Positions 14,300 through 44,800 of a stretch of 64,000 bases of DNA are shown piece by piece. A program made the position numbers and the translations under genes. Numbering within the stretch: the first letter of the stretch is position 1; every line of letters starts with the position of its first letter. This DNA is from Burkholderia latens (GTDB lineage: Bacteria; Pseudomonadota; Gammaproteobacteria; Burkholderiales; Burkholderiaceae): the NCBI RefSeq assembly GCF_001718795.1, contig NZ_CP013435.1, positions 2,480,001 to 2,544,000 of the forward strand, written 5' to 3'. The notes below the pieces were generated by a model. The model had not been told where the DNA came from, made no database searches, and saw only the letters and a list, made by a program, of their open reading frames with translations.

Positions 14300-14668
14300 A
14301 TGCTGAAGCTCATTGCTGTCGCCGGCGTCACCGCCCTGCTGGCCGGCTGCGTCGTCGGGCCGGACGCCGGATACGGCTACGGGCCGACCTACTATTCCGA
14401 TCCGGGCTATGCGTACGGCCCGGCCTACGCGCCTTCGCCCGTGTATGGCACGGTCAACATCTGGGGCGGCGGCGGACGCGACTGGGACCGCGACCGTCGC
14501 GGCTGGGATCGCGGACGCGACGGTTGGAATCGCGACCGCGGCGGTTGGGACCGCGACCGCGGCGAGCGCGCGCGTCATGGCGGCTGGGGCCGCGGCGACG
14601 GACGCCGCGCCGACTGGAATGATGGCGGCGGAAACGGCCAGGGCAACGGCGGCGGCCATCGCCACTGA
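14300..14668 (+). CDS. Small lipoprotein with WDRDR-type repeats
   Basis: 122 residues. The signal peptide ends in the lipobox LLAGC (Cys at about residue 17), so it is probably a lipoprotein. After a Tyr/Gly-rich stretch (GPTYYSDPGYAYGPAYAP), residues 60-90 are made of repeats of about 7 residues of the form GWDRDRx: DWDRDRRGWDRGRDGWN and so on. The end is Gly/Asn/His-rich. The function is unknown. The strongly charged repeat is probably extended or disordered. GGAG lies ahead of the ATG. A terminator hairpin follows. Confidence 0.8.
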   Translation: MLKLIAVAGVTALLAGCVVGPDAGYGYGPTYYSDPGYAYGPAYAPSPVYGTVNIWGGGGRDWDRDRRGWDRGRDGWNRDRGGWDRDRGERARHGGWGRGDGRRADWNDGGGNGQGNGGGHRH

Positions 14669-40126: not shown

Positions 40127-40654
40127 TTACTTCTTGTAGTTCGCAGCGCCGTCGGCGATTTCCTTGTGCGCGGCGTCGATGCCGGCCCAGCCTTCGACCT
40201 TCACCCACTTGCCCTTTTCGAGCGCCTTGTATTGCTCGAAGAAGTGCTTGATCTGATCCTTCAGGTATTCGGGCACGTCGTCGATCGACTTCAGGTTCGC
40301 CGTCATCGGGCAGACCTTGTCGTGCGGCACGGCGACGAGCTTCGCGTCGACGCCCGATTCGTCCGTCATTTGCAGCATCCCGAGCACGCGCGAACGCACG
40401 ATCGAGCCGGCCAGCAGCGGGAACGGCGTGATCACCAGCACGTCGACCGGATCGCCGTCGCCCGACAGCGTCTGCGGGATGTAGCCGTAGTTCACCGGAT
40501 AGCGCATGCCGGTACCGATGAAGCGGTCGACGACGAGGAGACCCAGCTCCTTGTCCGCCTCGTACTTCACCGGATCGCTTTGGGCGGGAATCTCGATGAT
40601 CACGTTGAAATCGTGCGGCAGGTCCTTGCCGGCCGGAACATGATTGAAGCTCAT
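40127..40654 (-). CDS. ppa: Inorganic pyrophosphatase
   Basis: 175 residues, the size of family I pyrophosphatases. Active-site residues are visible: [15 protein letters not shown] (Lys/Glu), [24 protein letters not shown] (three Asp for Mg2+) and VPHDKV. It hydrolyses pyrophosphate to drive biosynthesis. The gene is monocistronic. Its upstream region faces the 49-bp repeat array starting 190 bp away. Confidence 0.97.
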
Positions 40655-40843
40655 AGCGCTCTCTGTTGGTCGATGGGAATTCGGGACGAGGCGCCGCGGC
40701 CGATGCACCGCCGCGGGCGTCCCCGCAGGGAATGCGCCATTATAGCCAATCGACCGGTGGCGTCCGGATGACGATCGGCGCGATAATCGTTCCGGATGTC
40801 CGGGCAACGACGCGTGGGCGGCATCGTGAATCCGGCGTCGAGC
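40655..40843. other. Gap between ppa and the repeat array
   Basis: About 190 bp with the ppa promoter region. No gene-like frame and no strong inverted repeat was seen apart from the array that follows. Confidence 0.4.
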
Positions 40844-41080
40844 ATGGAACCCGGGTATCCGCTAAAGCGCTGACTCGGGTCGACCGCGAAGCATGGGACC
40901 CGGGTATCCGCTCAAGCGCTAACTCGGGTCGACCGCGAAGCATGGGACCCGGGTATCCGCTAAAGCGCTAACTCGGGTCGACCGCGAAGCATGGGACCCG
41001 GGTATCCGCTAAAGCGCTAACTCGGGTCGACCGCGAAGCATGGGACCCGAGTAAGCGCTAAAGCGCTAACTCGGGTCGAC
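40844..41080 (+). repeat. Tandem array of five 49-bp repeats before the aldehyde dehydrogenase gene
   Basis: Units start at 40844, 40893, 40942, 40991 and 41040. Units 1 to 4 are 49 bp and differ at only a few positions; the fifth is 41 bp and leads straight into AGGAGCAGGC and the ATG at 41091. Each unit begins ATGGGACCC and ends TCGGGTCGACCGCGAAGC. Each holds GACCCG and CGGGTC as outer inverted arms and an AGCGCT/AAGCGC core. There are no spacers. Each unit also contains in-frame-looking ATGs, but 49 is not a multiple of three, so it does not encode a repeat protein. It is either an operator array or the result of slippage duplication of one operator. Confidence 0.9.
41044..41077 (+). promoter_or_regulatory. 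34-bp near-perfect palindrome in the last repeat unit
   Basis: The arms GACCCGAGTAAGCGCT and AGCGCTAACTCGGGTC match at 15 of 16 positions around a 2-bp centre (AA). The palindrome ends 4 bp before the Shine-Dalgarno sequence AGGAG of the aldehyde dehydrogenase gene. The same symmetry is present but weaker in units 1-4. It could be a repressor operator or an mRNA hairpin that controls ribosome access. Confidence 0.7.
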
Positions 41081-41090
41081 AGGAGCAGGC

Positions 41091-42530
41091 ATGGAAGAAG
41101 CGAAGCACTTCATTGCGGGCGAATGGACACTGCCCGCGCAACTGGAGACAATCCCGGTCGTCGACCCGTCCGACGGCCAACCGTTCGCGACGATCGCGCG
41201 CGGCACCGCACCCGATATCGAGCGCGCCGTCGCCGCCGCCCGCGATGCATTCGCCGGCCCGTGGGGCGCCGCGAGCGCCGCCGAGCGCGGCCGCGTGCTG
41301 ATGCGCCTGTCAGCGCGCGTCGCCGATCACCTAGAGGAGCTTGCCGCAATCGAAGCCCGCGATACCGGCAAGCCGCTGAAGCAGGCACGCGCCGACGCGG
41401 CCGCACTCGCGCGCTACTTCGAATTCTACGCAGGGGCCGCCGACAAGCTGCACGGCGAAACGCTCCCCTATCACGCCGGCTACACGGTGCTGACAGTGCG
41501 CGAACCGCATGGCGTCACCGCCCACATCGTGCCGTGGAACTATCCGATGCAGATCTTCGGCCGCAGCGTCGGCGCCGCGCTTGCGGCCGGCAACGCGTGC
41601 GTCGTGAAGCCGGCCGAAGATGCATGCCTGTCGGTGCTGCGCGTGGCGGAACTCGCCGCCGAAGCCGGCTTGCCGGCCGGTGCGCTCAACGTCGTCACCG
41701 GCTACGGTCATGAAGCAGGCGCCGCGCTCGCACGCCATCCCGGCATCGACCACATCTCGTTTACCGGCTCGCCGGCAACCGGCAAGCTCGTCACGCAGAT
41801 GGCGGCCGAGAACCACGTGCCGGTCACGCTCGAACTCGGCGGCAAGTCGCCGCAGATCGTGTTCGCCGACGCCGATCTCGAAGCGGCGCTGCCCGTGCTC
41901 GTGTCGGCGATCGTGCAAAACGGCGGGCAGACCTGCTCGGCCGGCAGCCGCGTGCTGATCGAGCGCGCGGTGTACGAGCCGCTCGTCGAACGGCTCGCGA
42001 CCGCGTTCAACGGATTGCGCGTCGGCCCGAGCCGCGCCGATCTCGACTGCGGCCCGCTGATCAACGCAAAGCAGCAGCAGCGCGTGTGGGATTTCCTGTC
42101 CGACGCGCAGCACGACGGCATTCCAATGGCCGCGCACGGCCAGGTCGTCGCCGATGCTCCTGAAAGCGGCTTTTACCAGGCGCCCGCGCTGCTGCGCGAC
42201 GTGCCGGCGTCGCACCGGCTCGCGCAGGAAGAAGTGTTCGGCCCCGTGCTCGCCGCGATGCGGTTCGTCGACGAGGACGAAGCGGTCGCGCTCGCGAACG
42301 GCACACCGTACGGCCTCGTCGCCGGCATCTGGACGCGCGACGGCGCGCGGCAGTTGCGTCTCGCGCGACGCCTGCGTGCGGGCCAGGTGTTCATCAACAA
42401 CTACGGCGCGGGCGGCGGCGTCGAATTGCCGTTCGGCGGCGTCGGCCACTCGGGCCACGGCCGCGAAAAAGGCTTCGAGGCACTTTACGGATTCACCGCG
42501 CTGAAGACGATCGCGATCCGGCACGGCTGA
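41091..42530 (+). CDS. NAD(P)-dependent aldehyde dehydrogenase
   Basis: 479 residues, a standard ALDH. Asn150 is in VPWNYPMQ, the general base Glu248 in LELGGKSPQ, and the catalytic Cys282 in GGQTCSAGSRV. The coenzyme loop reads FTGSPATGKL, and EEVFGPVLAAMRF marks the catalytic domain end. It oxidises an aldehyde to an acid. It heads a likely operon with an SDR (73 bp downstream) and an MFS carrier, so it may act after the SDR in oxidation of a sugar, diol or aromatic alcohol. AGGAG sits seven bases ahead of the ATG, directly after a tandem repeat array. Confidence 0.95.
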   Translation: MEEAKHFIAGEWTLPAQLETIPVVDPSDGQPFATIARGTAPDIERAVAAARDAFAGPWGAASAAERGRVLMRLSARVADHLEELAAIEARDTGKPLKQARADAAALARYFEFYAGAADKLHGETLPYHAGYTVLTVREPHGVTAHIVPWNYPMQIFGRSVGAALAAGNACVVKPAEDACLSVLRVAELAAEAGLPAGALNVVTGYGHEAGAALARHPGIDHISFTGSPATGKLVTQMAAENHVPVTLELGGKSPQIVFADADLEAALPVLVSAIVQNGGQTCSAGSRVLIERAVYEPLVERLATAFNGLRVGPSRADLDCGPLINAKQQQRVWDFLSDAQHDGIPMAAHGQVVADAPESGFYQAPALLRDVPASHRLAQEEVFGPVLAAMRFVDEDEAVALANGTPYGLVAGIWTRDGARQLRLARRLRAGQVFINNYGAGGGVELPFGGVGHSGHGREKGFEALYGFTALKTIAIRHG

Positions 42531-42603: not shown

Positions 42604-43362
42604 ATGCGGTTGAGCGGCAAGACGGCCATCGTCACCGGCGGCGGCTCGGGTTTCGGCGAAGGTATCGCAAAGACGTACGCGCGCGAAGGCGCGAACGTGG
42701 TCGTCAACGACCTGAACGGCGCGGCGGCCGAGCGCGTCGCGAGCGAGATCGCGCTGGCTGGCGGCAAGGCGATCGCGGTCGCGGGCGACGTGTCGAAGGA
42801 CGCCGACTGGCGCGCGCTGCTCGAAGCCGCGCTCGACGACTTCCATTCGGTGCAGGTCGTCGTGAACAACGCCGGCACCACCCACCGCAACAAGCCGGTG
42901 CTCGACGTAACGGAAGCCGAGTTCGACCGCGTGTACGCGGTCAACATGAAGAGCCTGTTCTGGAGCGTGCAGACCTTCGTCCCCTACTTCCGCGCGCAAG
43001 GCGGCGGCGTGTTCGTGAACGTCGCGTCCACGGCCGGCGTGCGGCCTCGCCCGGGCCTCGTCTGGTACAACAGCACGAAGGGCGCGATGATTACCGCGAG
43101 CAAGTCGCTCGCGGCAGAACTCGGCGCCGACCGCATCCGCGTGAACTGCATCAACCCGGTGCTCGGCGAGACGGGCCTGATGACCGAGTTCATGGGCTGC
43201 GAGGATACGCCCGAGAATCGCCGCCGGTTCCTCGCGACGATTCCGCTCGGCCGCTTCTCGACCCCGCAGGACATCGCGAACGCGGCCCTTTACCTCGCAT
43301 CGGACGAAGCCGAGTTCATCACCGGCGTCTGTCTCGAAGTCGACGGCGGCCGCTGCATCTAG
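42604..43362 (+). CDS. Short-chain dehydrogenase/reductase
   Basis: 252 residues, a classical SDR. It carries TGGGSGFGEGIA for the nucleotide, NNAGTTHRNKP, the catalytic Ser in NVASTAG and Tyr/Lys in YNSTKGA, and a C-terminal GVCLEVDGG. An Asp or Asn (VVNDLNG) at the end of strand 2 suggests NAD preference. AGGAGACACACC precedes the ATG. It follows the aldehyde dehydrogenase gene on the same strand, and an MFS carrier follows, so it is probably a catabolic alcohol dehydrogenase rather than FabG. Substrate unknown. Confidence 0.92.
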   Translation: MRLSGKTAIVTGGGSGFGEGIAKTYAREGANVVVNDLNGAAAERVASEIALAGGKAIAVAGDVSKDADWRALLEAALDDFHSVQVVVNNAGTTHRNKPVLDVTEAEFDRVYAVNMKSLFWSVQTFVPYFRAQGGGVFVNVASTAGVRPRPGLVWYNSTKGAMITASKSLAAELGADRIRVNCINPVLGETGLMTEFMGCEDTPENRRRFLATIPLGRFSTPQDIANAALYLASDEAEFITGVCLEVDGGRCI

Positions 43363-43495: not shown

Positions 43496-44800
43496 ATGGC
43501 AACATCGACGCATTCGCTGCCGGGCTCGTCCGGCGCATTCGAGGAAGCAACCTACCGCAAGGTGTCGTGGCGGCTCACTCCGCTACTGCTGCTGTGCTAC
43601 GTGGTCGCGTATCTCGACCGCGTCAACGTCGGTTTCGCGAAGCTGCAGATGGCGAGCGACCTGAATCTGAGCGATACCGTCTACGGGCTCGGTGCCGGGA
43701 TTTTCTTCTTCGGCTACTTTCTGTTCGAAGTGCCGAGCAACATCATCCTGCACAAGGTCGGCGCGCGCGTATGGATCGCGCGGATCATGGCGACGTGGGG
43801 CGTGATCTCGATCCTGACGATGTTCGTCACGACGCCCGCGATGTTCTACGTCATGCGCTTTCTGCTCGGCGTCGCCGAGGCCGGCTTCTTCCCCGGCGTG
43901 ATCCTGTATCTCACCTACTGGTATCCGGCCCATCGACGCGGACGGATGACGACGTTCTTCATGACGGCCGTCGCGCTGTCCGGCGTGATCGGCGGCCCGA
44001 TCTCCGGGTTCATCCTGAAGGCGTTCAACGGTGTGAGCGGCTGGCACGGCTGGCAGTGGCTGTTCCTGCTCGAAGGGATTCCGTCGGTGCTGGCCGGCGT
44101 GCTGGTGTTCTTTGCGCTCGACGACCGGATCGCGAAGGCGAAATGGCTGACCGACGACGAGAAGGCGCTGCTCGCACGCAACGTCGACGCGGAGGAAGCG
44201 ACGAAGGAAGACCTGCCGCTCGGCATGGTGATGTCGAGCCCGCGCGTGTGGCTGATGGCCCTGATCTACTTCTCGTTCGTGATGGGGTTGTACGGCGTCG
44301 GCTTCTGGCTGCCGACGATCATCAAGGCGACCGGCGTGACCGACACGGTCATGATCGGGCTGCTGTCGGCGGTGCCGTACGCGGCGGCGGTGGTCGCGAT
44401 GATCCTGATCGCGCGCAGCGCGGACAAGCGCCGCGAACGGCGCTGGCACCTGGCGATTCCGGCCGCGTTCGGCGCGGTGGGGCTCGTGCTGTCGGTTATC
44501 TGGGCGCACGAAACGTCGCTCGCGATGCTCGGCCTCACGCTGGCGACGATGGGCATCCTGACGACGCTGCCGCTGTTCTGGAGCCTGCCGACCGCGTTCC
44601 TCGGCGGCGCCGCGGCCGCTGCCGGCATCGCGATGATCAACTCGATCGGCAACCTCGCGGGTTTTCTGAGCCCGTACCTGATGGGCTGGCTCAAGCAGGC
44701 GACGGGCACCAACGACGCGGGCATGTACATGCTCGCCGGCTTCCTTGTGCTCGGCGGCCTGCTCGCGCTGTCGGTGCCGAAGCGGCTCGTCGACAAGTAA
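43496..44800 (+). CDS. MFS transporter, anion:cation symporter (phthalate/tartrate permease-like)
   Basis: 434 residues with 12 membrane helices. The start YRKVSWRLTPLLLLCYVVAYLDRVNVGFAK is typical of the ACS family (phthalate, tartrate, 4-hydroxyphenylacetate, hexuronate permeases), with GVAEAGFFPGVILYLTYWYP in helix 4-5 and the loop HRRGRMTTFFMT. ACS proteins import organic anions with protons. It is the last gene of the ALDH-SDR-MFS set and is followed by a terminator. GGACAGGAG before the ATG at 43496 fixes the start. Confidence 0.92.
   Translation: MATSTHSLPGSSGAFEEATYRKVSWRLTPLLLLCYVVAYLDRVNVGFAKLQMASDLNLSDTVYGLGAGIFFFGYFLFEVPSNIILHKVGARVWIARIMATWGVISILTMFVTTPAMFYVMRFLLGVAEAGFFPGVILYLTYWYPAHRRGRMTTFFMTAVALSGVIGGPISGFILKAFNGVSGWHGWQWLFLLEGIPSVLAGVLVFFALDDRIAKAKWLTDDEKALLARNVDAEEATKEDLPLGMVMSSPRVWLMALIYFSFVMGLYGVGFWLPTIIKATGVTDTVMIGLLSAVPYAAAVVAMILIARSADKRRERRWHLAIPAAFGAVGLVLSVIWAHETSLAMLGLTLATMGILTTLPLFWSLPTAFLGGAAAAAGIAMINSIGNLAGFLSPYLMGWLKQATGTNDAGMYMLAGFLVLGGLLALSVPKRLVDK

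What the first reader, a model, noticed from the sequence alone, without database searches (positions are those of the whole stretch)
40844..41080. Five 49-bp tandem repeats with internal dyad symmetry abut the start of a catabolic operon
The repeats run without spacers up to the Shine-Dalgarno sequence of the aldehyde dehydrogenase gene. Units 1-4 are nearly identical, while the last is shorter and carries a 34-bp palindrome with one mismatch. Because 49 is not a multiple of 3, no repeat protein is encoded. Copy number could change by slippage and tune the ALDH-SDR-MFS operon, or the array may titrate a regulator. No regulator is encoded next to the operon.
Basis: seen in the sequence. Interest (0 to 1): 0.7.

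Follow-up and report, generated by a model that had tools for sequence, protein, structure and literature searches.

The report
Dispersed hairpin repeats docked at ribosome-binding sites
The five repeats in front of this gene belong to a large family of small hairpin-forming DNA elements scattered through Burkholderia and related bacteria, which often sit directly in front of the ribosome-binding site of a gene and come, go and multiply between species.

Summary
The array is real (TRF 40841-41080, period 49, 4.9 copies) but not peculiar to this operon. Its unit is a 34-nt hairpin: 9-bp arm, A·A mismatch, AGCGC-UNAA-GCGCU apex, flanked by GCATGG and GAC. Matches occur in 37 of 37 same-genus genomes and in 83 of 200 family genomes, 8 of 25 genera (in one genus the copies read lie in rRNA spacers). 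Arms differ between arrays but stay complementary (19 distinct perfect arm pairs).

In five genomes, 63 of 89 clusters end with a hairpin 5-32 nt before the start of a same-strand gene, with a Shine-Dalgarno (SD)-like site between; background 219 of 2700, antisense 1 of 89. The gene-proximal hairpin is the most intact; copies decay upstream. Orthologous sites are occupied or empty between relatives. A few units sit inside another unit's loop.

Best reading: a mobile-like, SD-docking hairpin element that expands in tandem within mRNA leaders. Any effect on expression is inferred; computed SD exposure does not change without the hairpin. Factor and mobilising enzyme are unknown. Ten searches of open-licence papers showed no description.

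The parts
40841..41080 (+). tandem array, period 49, 4.9 copies
40792..40840 (+). decayed unit upstream of the clean array
   Evidence: the repeat finder family D1, 62% identity over its 98-nt register
40848..40881 (+). hairpin of unit 1, lowest-scoring of the five (46.8 bits)
   Evidence: model R1 match 40840-40884
40897..40930 (+). hairpin of unit 2
40946..40979 (+). hairpin of unit 3
40995..41028 (+). hairpin of unit 4
41044..41077 (+). SD-proximal hairpin of unit 5, perfect arms, A·A mismatch, UAAA loop (76.7 bits, shares the top score; it is one of the sequences behind the model)
41081..41085 (+). Shine-Dalgarno AGGAG of the ALDH gene
   Evidence: sequence
40782..40787 (+). GATAAT, putative -10 box conserved in 16 occupied or empty orthologous regions; would put the array in the 5' UTR (inference; the sigma-70 scan did not flag it)
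41091..42530 (+). aldehyde dehydrogenase gene (PF00171)
42604..43362 (+). short-chain dehydrogenase gene (PF13561)
43496..44800 (+). MFS transporter gene (PF07690)
40127..40654 (-). divergent ppa, inorganic pyrophosphatase (PF00719)

Best explanation
The array is a locally amplified copy of a ~49-nt mobile-like hairpin element dispersed in Burkholderia and related genera. Shown by comparison: the element occurs mostly directly 5' of Shine-Dalgarno-like sites in one orientation, is present or absent at the same site in relatives, and forms head-to-tail arrays there. Inferred: it lies within the transcribed leader or intercistronic spacer (here downstream of a conserved GATAAT box), so the mRNA carries one to many hairpins ending at the SD; the SD-proximal hairpin is the copy that matters, and older copies lie upstream and decay; a hairpin-recognising factor (RNA-binding protein, RNase or ribosome-linked factor) acts on the conserved apex and A·A mismatch and changes translation or stability of the downstream cistron. 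Neither the factor nor the mobilising enzyme is identified, and no effect on expression is shown.
For: Family: 37 of 37 same-genus genomes, 0 of 24 from other families of the order; 83 of 200 family genomes, 8 of 25 genera; 17 records of Burkholderia, Paraburkholderia and Caballeronia in the plasmid collection. Structure: 14 pairs, 96.1% of cells paired, 52 cells changed on both sides, 0 of 500 shuffles (rows preselected for at least 7 of 9 arm pairs). Without that selection, 165 contexts found by the apex sequence alone give 8.25 Watson-Crick pairs of 9 against 6.63 shuffled (maximum 6.85), with 19 distinct perfect arm pairs. Position: 63 of 89 clusters SD-adjacent in sense; 219 of 2700 random non-coding slots; 1 of 89 antisense. 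Mobility: occupied and empty sites at ALDH, trpA and moaE, exbD and a thiolase gene; 6 of 363 units nested in another unit's loop, control mean 0.61, maximum 4. Polarity: perfect arms in 36 of 42 SD-proximal units, then 20 of 42, 8 of 41 and 4 of 27 further up; proximal better than most distal in 34 of 41, equal in 7, worse in 0.
Against: No transcript data: leader location rests on the conserved box, which the promoter scan did not flag, and on intercistronic cases. Computed SD exposure is the same with the hairpin, without it, or shuffled (0.493, 0.503, 0.502; 63 loci). One of the five covariation measures, further pair types, is not above shuffles (14 against 13.0; 183 of 500). G·U cells (34) are not in excess over A·C-type cells (42 in the printed lists, my addition), so pairing selection specific to RNA is not shown; palindrome-correcting mutation could also keep arms complementary. 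Many orthologous sites are empty, against an important function. Outside the window's genus the docking rule weakens (G183 8 of 19, G100 19 of 29), and of 20 G094 loci chosen for near-identical top scores only 3 are SD-adjacent in sense. The polarity test is partly built in, since the walk up an array stops at poor units. Whether empty sites are ancestral or deletions was not resolved.
Confidence: 0.6

Rival explanations
1. A dedicated post-transcriptional regulon: the hairpin is primarily a regulatory site for one trans-acting factor, spread and kept by selection on catabolic and bioenergetic genes.
For: Of 27 SD-docked genes in G018 and G007, 25 were scanned; they include a FadD-like ligase, two acyl-CoA dehydrogenases, a thiolase, PcaJ/ScoB, 3-hydroxyisobutyrate dehydrogenase, lactate permease, amino-acid permease, PrpD family, GcvP, SoxD, PDH E2, an FAD monooxygenase-type and a Rieske ring-hydroxylating protein. 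Orthologues carry it in different genera: exbD and thiolase; PDH E2 in G007 and, by its first residues, G183. Sense orientation. Conserved apex and A·A mismatch.
Against: No enrichment against a gene background was computed. Targets also include NadA, TrpA, ATP synthase epsilon and DUF2164. Sites are patchy between close species.
Confidence: 0.2
2. Purely selfish element: an insertion mechanism that targets purine-rich SD-like sequence in a fixed orientation, with no regulatory role; tandem growth is slippage.
For: Empty and occupied sites; in G012 the thiolase copy is followed by AGGCCAAGGAG, i.e. it lies 5' of an AGG a little upstream of the SD; nested units; four units next to an A-run, terminator-like on the other strand; composite repeats in G094.
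Against: Conserved A·A and apex across genera; occupation of the same genes in different genera; the gene-proximal copy is the best preserved.
Confidence: 0.3
3. DNA-level operator or titration array for a transcription factor.
For: Dyad symmetry and conserved AGCGCT half-sites; location between promoter-like box and gene here.
Against: Outer arms vary but remain self-complementary; fixed strand polarity; several sites lie close behind a same-strand gene, e.g. 11 nt in L021 and L089 (read by me as moaD-moaE).
Confidence: 0.07
4. A REP family moved or bound by the RAYT-like protein encoded next to a gene that I read as gltB.
For: Imperfect palindrome with a conserved head; enterobacterial REPs listed in PMC2817692 (passages) show a TAAGCG..AGCGC apex; a RAYT-like gene (NF047646, 50 bits against cut-off 80) lies beside the same neighbour in 8 of 8 genomes.
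Against: No hairpin of this family in the 3.3 kb around the gene, 8 of 8 loci. The protein is in 184 of 200 family genomes, hairpins in 83. Of 12 further proteins sampled, the HUH motif reads intact in 5 (genera g35, g27, g48), altered in 5, unread in 2; the altered ones include g32, where G106 has no hairpin match up to E = 1, and one search shows alteration also in g39 and apparently g31.
Confidence: 0.06
5. Neutral local tandem duplication without wider meaning.
For: Upstream units decay.
Against: Family-wide distribution, position and orientation.
Confidence: 0.02

Closest known systems
BOX, RUP and SPRITE repeats of Streptococcus pneumoniae (PMC3049150, passages read)
   Same: small dispersed intergenic repeats with strong folding; BOX contains a variable tandem array; mobile origin proposed; no clear functional class of flanking genes
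   Different: that paper reports over-representation between convergent genes; here most sites are gene-proximal, sense-oriented and SD-docked. An IS with matching ends was not sought here
REP/BIME elements and RAYT transposases (PMC2817692, passages read)
   Same: palindrome with a non-complementary part and a conserved head; dispersed; clustered
   Different: head GCATGG, not GT(A/G)G; head-to-tail copies, not alternating; not flanking the RAYT-like gene; SD-proximal
TAACTGA direct repeats of marine Beggiatoaceae (PMC4679880, passages read)
   Same: direct repeats mostly in forward orientation just upstream of start codons of many unrelated genes; suggested post-transcriptional sites; variable copy number
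   Different: 7-nt unit without predicted secondary structure, canonical SD rare; here a 49-nt hairpin unit followed by an SD
Rickettsia palindromic elements, dRS3/NIME, Correia elements (recalled, not compared here)
   Same: small palindromic dispersed elements
   Different: not compared by any search
Betaproteobacterial toxic small RNA RF02278 (PMC5688073, passages read)
   Same: multicopy structured RNA in Burkholderia
   Different: two hairpins, CU-rich, free-standing, not in tandem; no Rfam match at 40400-41300 up to E = 1

Membership tests
REP/RAYT | conserved GT(A/G)G head 5' of the palindrome | tested here: not met
   the six bases before the arm are GCATGG in 136 of 165 contexts
REP/RAYT | REPs flank the RAYT gene | tested here: not met
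   no family hairpin in 3.3 kb around the RAYT-like gene, 8 of 8 loci; the gene was called in 8 of 20 further loci, with no family hairpin listed there
REP/RAYT | alternating orientation in clusters | tested here: not met
   head-to-tail 49-nt steps
REP/RAYT | imperfect palindrome of 20-40 nt | tested here: met
   34 nt with A·A mismatch
REP/RAYT | more than 100 copies per genome | tested here: inconclusive
   64 and 30 matches in G007 and G018, with only 150 of 2120 and 2205 candidates scored
MITE (non-autonomous IS derivative) | terminal inverted repeats shared with a resident IS | not tested
   no IS ends were compared
MITE (non-autonomous IS derivative) | target-site duplication | tested here: inconclusive
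   occupied and empty sites read by eye show no clear duplication; junctions are ambiguous
small dispersed palindromic repeat | many similar copies at unrelated loci | tested here: met
cis-regulatory RNA | covarying structure | tested here: met
   but no G·U excess
cis-regulatory RNA | transcribed, alters expression | not testable with these tools
   no transcript data held
Rfam families | match to a covariance model | tested here: not met
   0 matches with E up to 1 at 40400-41300

The most novel reading that the evidence does not exclude
A portable leader module: a 49-nt mobile hairpin that docks 5' of Shine-Dalgarno sites and so brings unrelated cistrons, often inside operons, under one post-transcriptional factor; gene by gene it is gained, amplified in tandem and lost, so each species rewires its own set. 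The factor may be a domesticated, catalytically altered relative of a hairpin-recognising transposase, though no evidence ties the one found here to the hairpin.
Probability: 0.2. Interest if true: 0.88.

Novelty: new variant of a known kind. Interest (0 to 1): 0.72.

Why it matters
If the docking is by insertion, this is a mobile element whose target is the region just before the ribosome-binding site, unlike the convergent-gene positions over-represented for BOX, RUP and SPRITE (PMC3049150, passages). If it is kept by function, Burkholderia and allies share a post-transcriptional control layer over many operons that I did not find described. Either way the occupied and empty orthologous sites, the length series at the ALDH leader and the covarying arms make both questions directly testable.

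Tried and rejected
Minimal upstream ORF (ATG GGN NNN NNN TAA in the unit): rejected, since the proximal units of L071, L078 and L099 lack the in-frame TAA (read from the sequences).

RBS insulation by folding: no difference in computed SD exposure, 63 loci.

RAYT link: see the rival; no hairpin beside the gene, wider distribution than the hairpins, catalytic motifs altered also in a hairpin-less genus.

Exact 49-nt quantisation of the ALDH leader length: only suggestive (mean distance from an integer 0.20, P 0.09).

First nested-unit test had an unsuitable control (7 observed, control mean 9.5); the stricter test limits the gaps and gives 6 against 0.61. Some hairpins may be counted on both strands in these two calls.

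A B. multivorans locus (L031) was compared with three other species: B. arboris reads empty; B. stagnalis and B. cenocepacia were not read, because the script's anchor did not match.

Toxic small RNA RF02278: different structure (passages). The sigma-70 scan of 40600-41200 found one site, inside the ALDH gene, and none upstream of the array.

Paper searches for a description; no listing reports these elements. They cover open-licence papers only. The B. cenocepacia TSS paper PMC4603805 was searched for passages: one occurrence of 'repeat', none of 'hairpin' or 'palindrom'.

Full report
Observation. The array at 40841-41080 is real: TRF period 49, 4.9 copies, 96% matches. Its last unit (41044-41077) is a 34-nt palindrome with a single A·A mismatch, followed by GACAGGAG and the ATG of the aldehyde dehydrogenase gene at 41091. 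A decayed unit lies further upstream. Clean and decayed units lie between a GATAAT box at 40782 and the SD. The window is taken to come from the Burkholderia cepacia complex, because its ALDH is 98% identical to those of B. cenocepacia NCTC13227, B. cepacia LK29 and B. aenigmatica.

Distribution. A search with the array DNA found matches in 37 of 61 genomes: all 37 of the nearest held genus (g1) and none of 24 from other families of the order (at most 12 candidates scored per genome). In the plasmid and chromid collection 17 records match, in Burkholderia, Paraburkholderia and Caballeronia; no phage record does. A covariance model R1 built from 39 gene-proximal units matched 83 of 200 genomes of the family, 8 of 25 genera, including all 23 g1 genomes of that sample (counts are floors, 31 candidates scored per genome). 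With 150 candidates scored it gave 64 matches in G007 and 30 in G018, and 50, 32 and 15 in G100, G183 and G157. In genus g35, four of the five matches up to E = 1 in two genomes were read (L426-L429); by their flanks they lie in the 16S-23S rRNA spacer (recognised from memory of 23S sequence). So dispersed copies are shown for fewer than the eight genera.

Anatomy. Each unit reads GCATGG, a 9-nt arm, A, AGCGC, UNAA, GCGCU, A, the complementary arm, GAC. The arms differ between arrays and stay complementary: of 14 pairs, 9 show changes on both sides, 52 cells in all, with 0 of 500 shuffles reaching this; a fifth measure, further pair types, is not above shuffles (183 of 500). Those rows had been filtered for at least 7 of 9 paired arm positions (L038 fell out). 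I therefore repeated the test on 165 distinct contexts found by the apex sequence alone: mean 8.25 of 9 Watson-Crick pairs against 6.63 for shuffled partners, maximum 6.85, with 19 distinct perfect arm pairs. Orthologous loci are repeated in that set, so contexts are not independent. Departures are G·U in 34 cells, other in 89; G·U is not in excess of its mirror A·C, so the data do not say on which strand pairing matters.

Position. For five genomes I took the 3'-most model match of each cluster and asked whether a same-strand called gene has a start codon 5-32 nt further on with an SD-like triplet between. Yes in G018 12 of 12, G007 15 of 18, G100 19 of 29, G157 9 of 11, G183 8 of 19: 63 of 89. 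Left out beforehand: eight G007 matches that I take to be in four rRNA operons (one operon, L084, was read) and two weak G100 clusters that were not fetched. The same test on the other strand gives 1 of 89, and random 30-nt non-coding slots in the same loci give 219 of 2700. Most distances lie at 10-17 nt. The genes come from a simple caller of my own. Upstream neighbours are divergent genes or the preceding gene of the same strand, sometimes a few nucleotides away, as in L021 and L089, 11 nt behind a gene read as moaD. G094 was kept out because its 20 loci were chosen for near-identical high scores: there only L197, L199 and L200 are SD-docked in sense; L186, L198 and L201 lie next to an A-run, terminator-like on the other strand, and the others are part of a larger composite repeat.

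Dynamics. At the orthologous ALDH site, among 80 fetched loci, the script finds hairpins in six (B. cenocepacia NCTC13227, with two mismatched arm positions, IMCC1007, B. cepacia LK29, B. aenigmatica, Nafp2/4-1b, Bp8963), each ending 13 nt before the ATG; by eye they are decayed in B. seminalis, SRS-46 and B. stagnalis; D-99 and the Paraburkholderia, Caballeronia, Trinickia and Pandoraea orthologues printed have none. The GATAAT box is conserved in 16 sequences while its distance to the ATG runs from 44 to 441 nt. In 30 genomes, trpA has hairpins in 4 of 15 g1 genomes, decayed ones by eye in 4 more, and none in 15 genomes of other genera; moaE has them in 2 of 15 g1 genomes, a collapsed remnant in one, and none in the 15 others. 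Close exbD orthologues (15 loci) are occupied in g1, g44 and g49 and empty or remnant in others; the thiolase gene (30 loci) is occupied in g1, g44 and g37 and empty in others. In other genera some units sit inside the loop of another unit: 6 of 363 by a strict test, in five loci, control mean 0.61, maximum 4 in 200. Within 42 arrays the SD-proximal unit has perfect arms in 36; the next ones in 20 of 42, 8 of 41, 4 of 27. Whether the empty sites are ancestral or deletions was not resolved.

Mechanism. Orientation, distance to the SD, occupied and empty sites and nested copies fit a mobile-like hairpin element that docks 5' of SD sites and expands head to tail. Since the sites lie between a promoter-like box and the SD or between cistrons, the mRNA should carry the hairpins; this is inferred. 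A passive effect on SD exposure is not supported: mean unpaired probability 0.493 native, 0.503 deleted, 0.502 with shuffled hairpin, 63 loci. What remains is recognition of the conserved apex and A·A mismatch by a factor, or no function at all. Of 27 SD-docked genes in G018 and G007, 25 were scanned; many are of catabolism, but NadA, TrpA and ATP synthase epsilon are among them. No background was tested.

Candidates for the agent. A RAYT-like protein is conserved next to a gene read as gltB; NCBIfam NF047646 scores it at 50 bits, below its cut-off of 80. In the hairpin-bearing genomes its HUH motif reads altered. Of 12 further proteins, 5 read intact (g35, g27, g48), 5 altered (g32, g40, g41, g34, g37), 2 were not matched by the script. 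The altered g32 genome has no hairpin match up to E = 1, and adds g39 and apparently g31, also hairpin-less. No hairpin flanks the gene in 8 loci, and the gene is in 184 of 200 genomes. It stays a lead only.

Known relatives. BOX, RUP and SPRITE (PMC3049150, passages), REPs with RAYTs (PMC2817692, passages) and the TAACTGA repeats of Beggiatoaceae (PMC4679880, passages) each share part of this. In the passages seen, none combines a covarying hairpin, head-to-tail arrays, sense polarity and SD docking. Ten library searches listed no report of the family.

Noticed in passing
L182-L185, L187-L196, L201 (genome G094), L315 (G183): Composite dispersed repeat that embeds the hairpin on the opposite strand of what reads as a small ORF (ATGAAC.ACCCCCACGCTCAC...GTTCGCTGTC-hairpin-CCATGCAAAGC); more than ten similar copies in G094, several in front of genes.
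   Followed up: partly
L084 (G007), L426-L429 (g35 genomes): Hairpins of the same family in what I recognise as the 16S-23S rRNA spacer just before the 23S gene, and in G007 a second one after it; in genus g35 the matches read are all of this kind.
   Followed up: partly
L204-L211, L394-L405: A RAYT-like protein next to a gltB-like gene has altered HUH and tyrosine motifs in Burkholderia-clade genomes and intact ones in several other genera; looks like a domesticated transposase.
   Followed up: partly
L186, L198, L201, L320: Four hairpin copies abut an A-run (GACAAAAA on the A·A strand), terminator-like on the other strand.
   Followed up: no
L082 (G007 C1:127438-128034): Array before the ATP synthase epsilon gene with 13 model matches at steps of mostly 45 and 47 nt.
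   Followed up: no
L253 upstream of moaE (G022): Remnant GCTTTGCATGGGACCGGT: looks like a hairpin element collapsed to its outer base pairs.
   Followed up: no
window 14483-14564: 21-bp tandem repeat, 3.9 copies, unit a multiple of 3.
   Followed up: no
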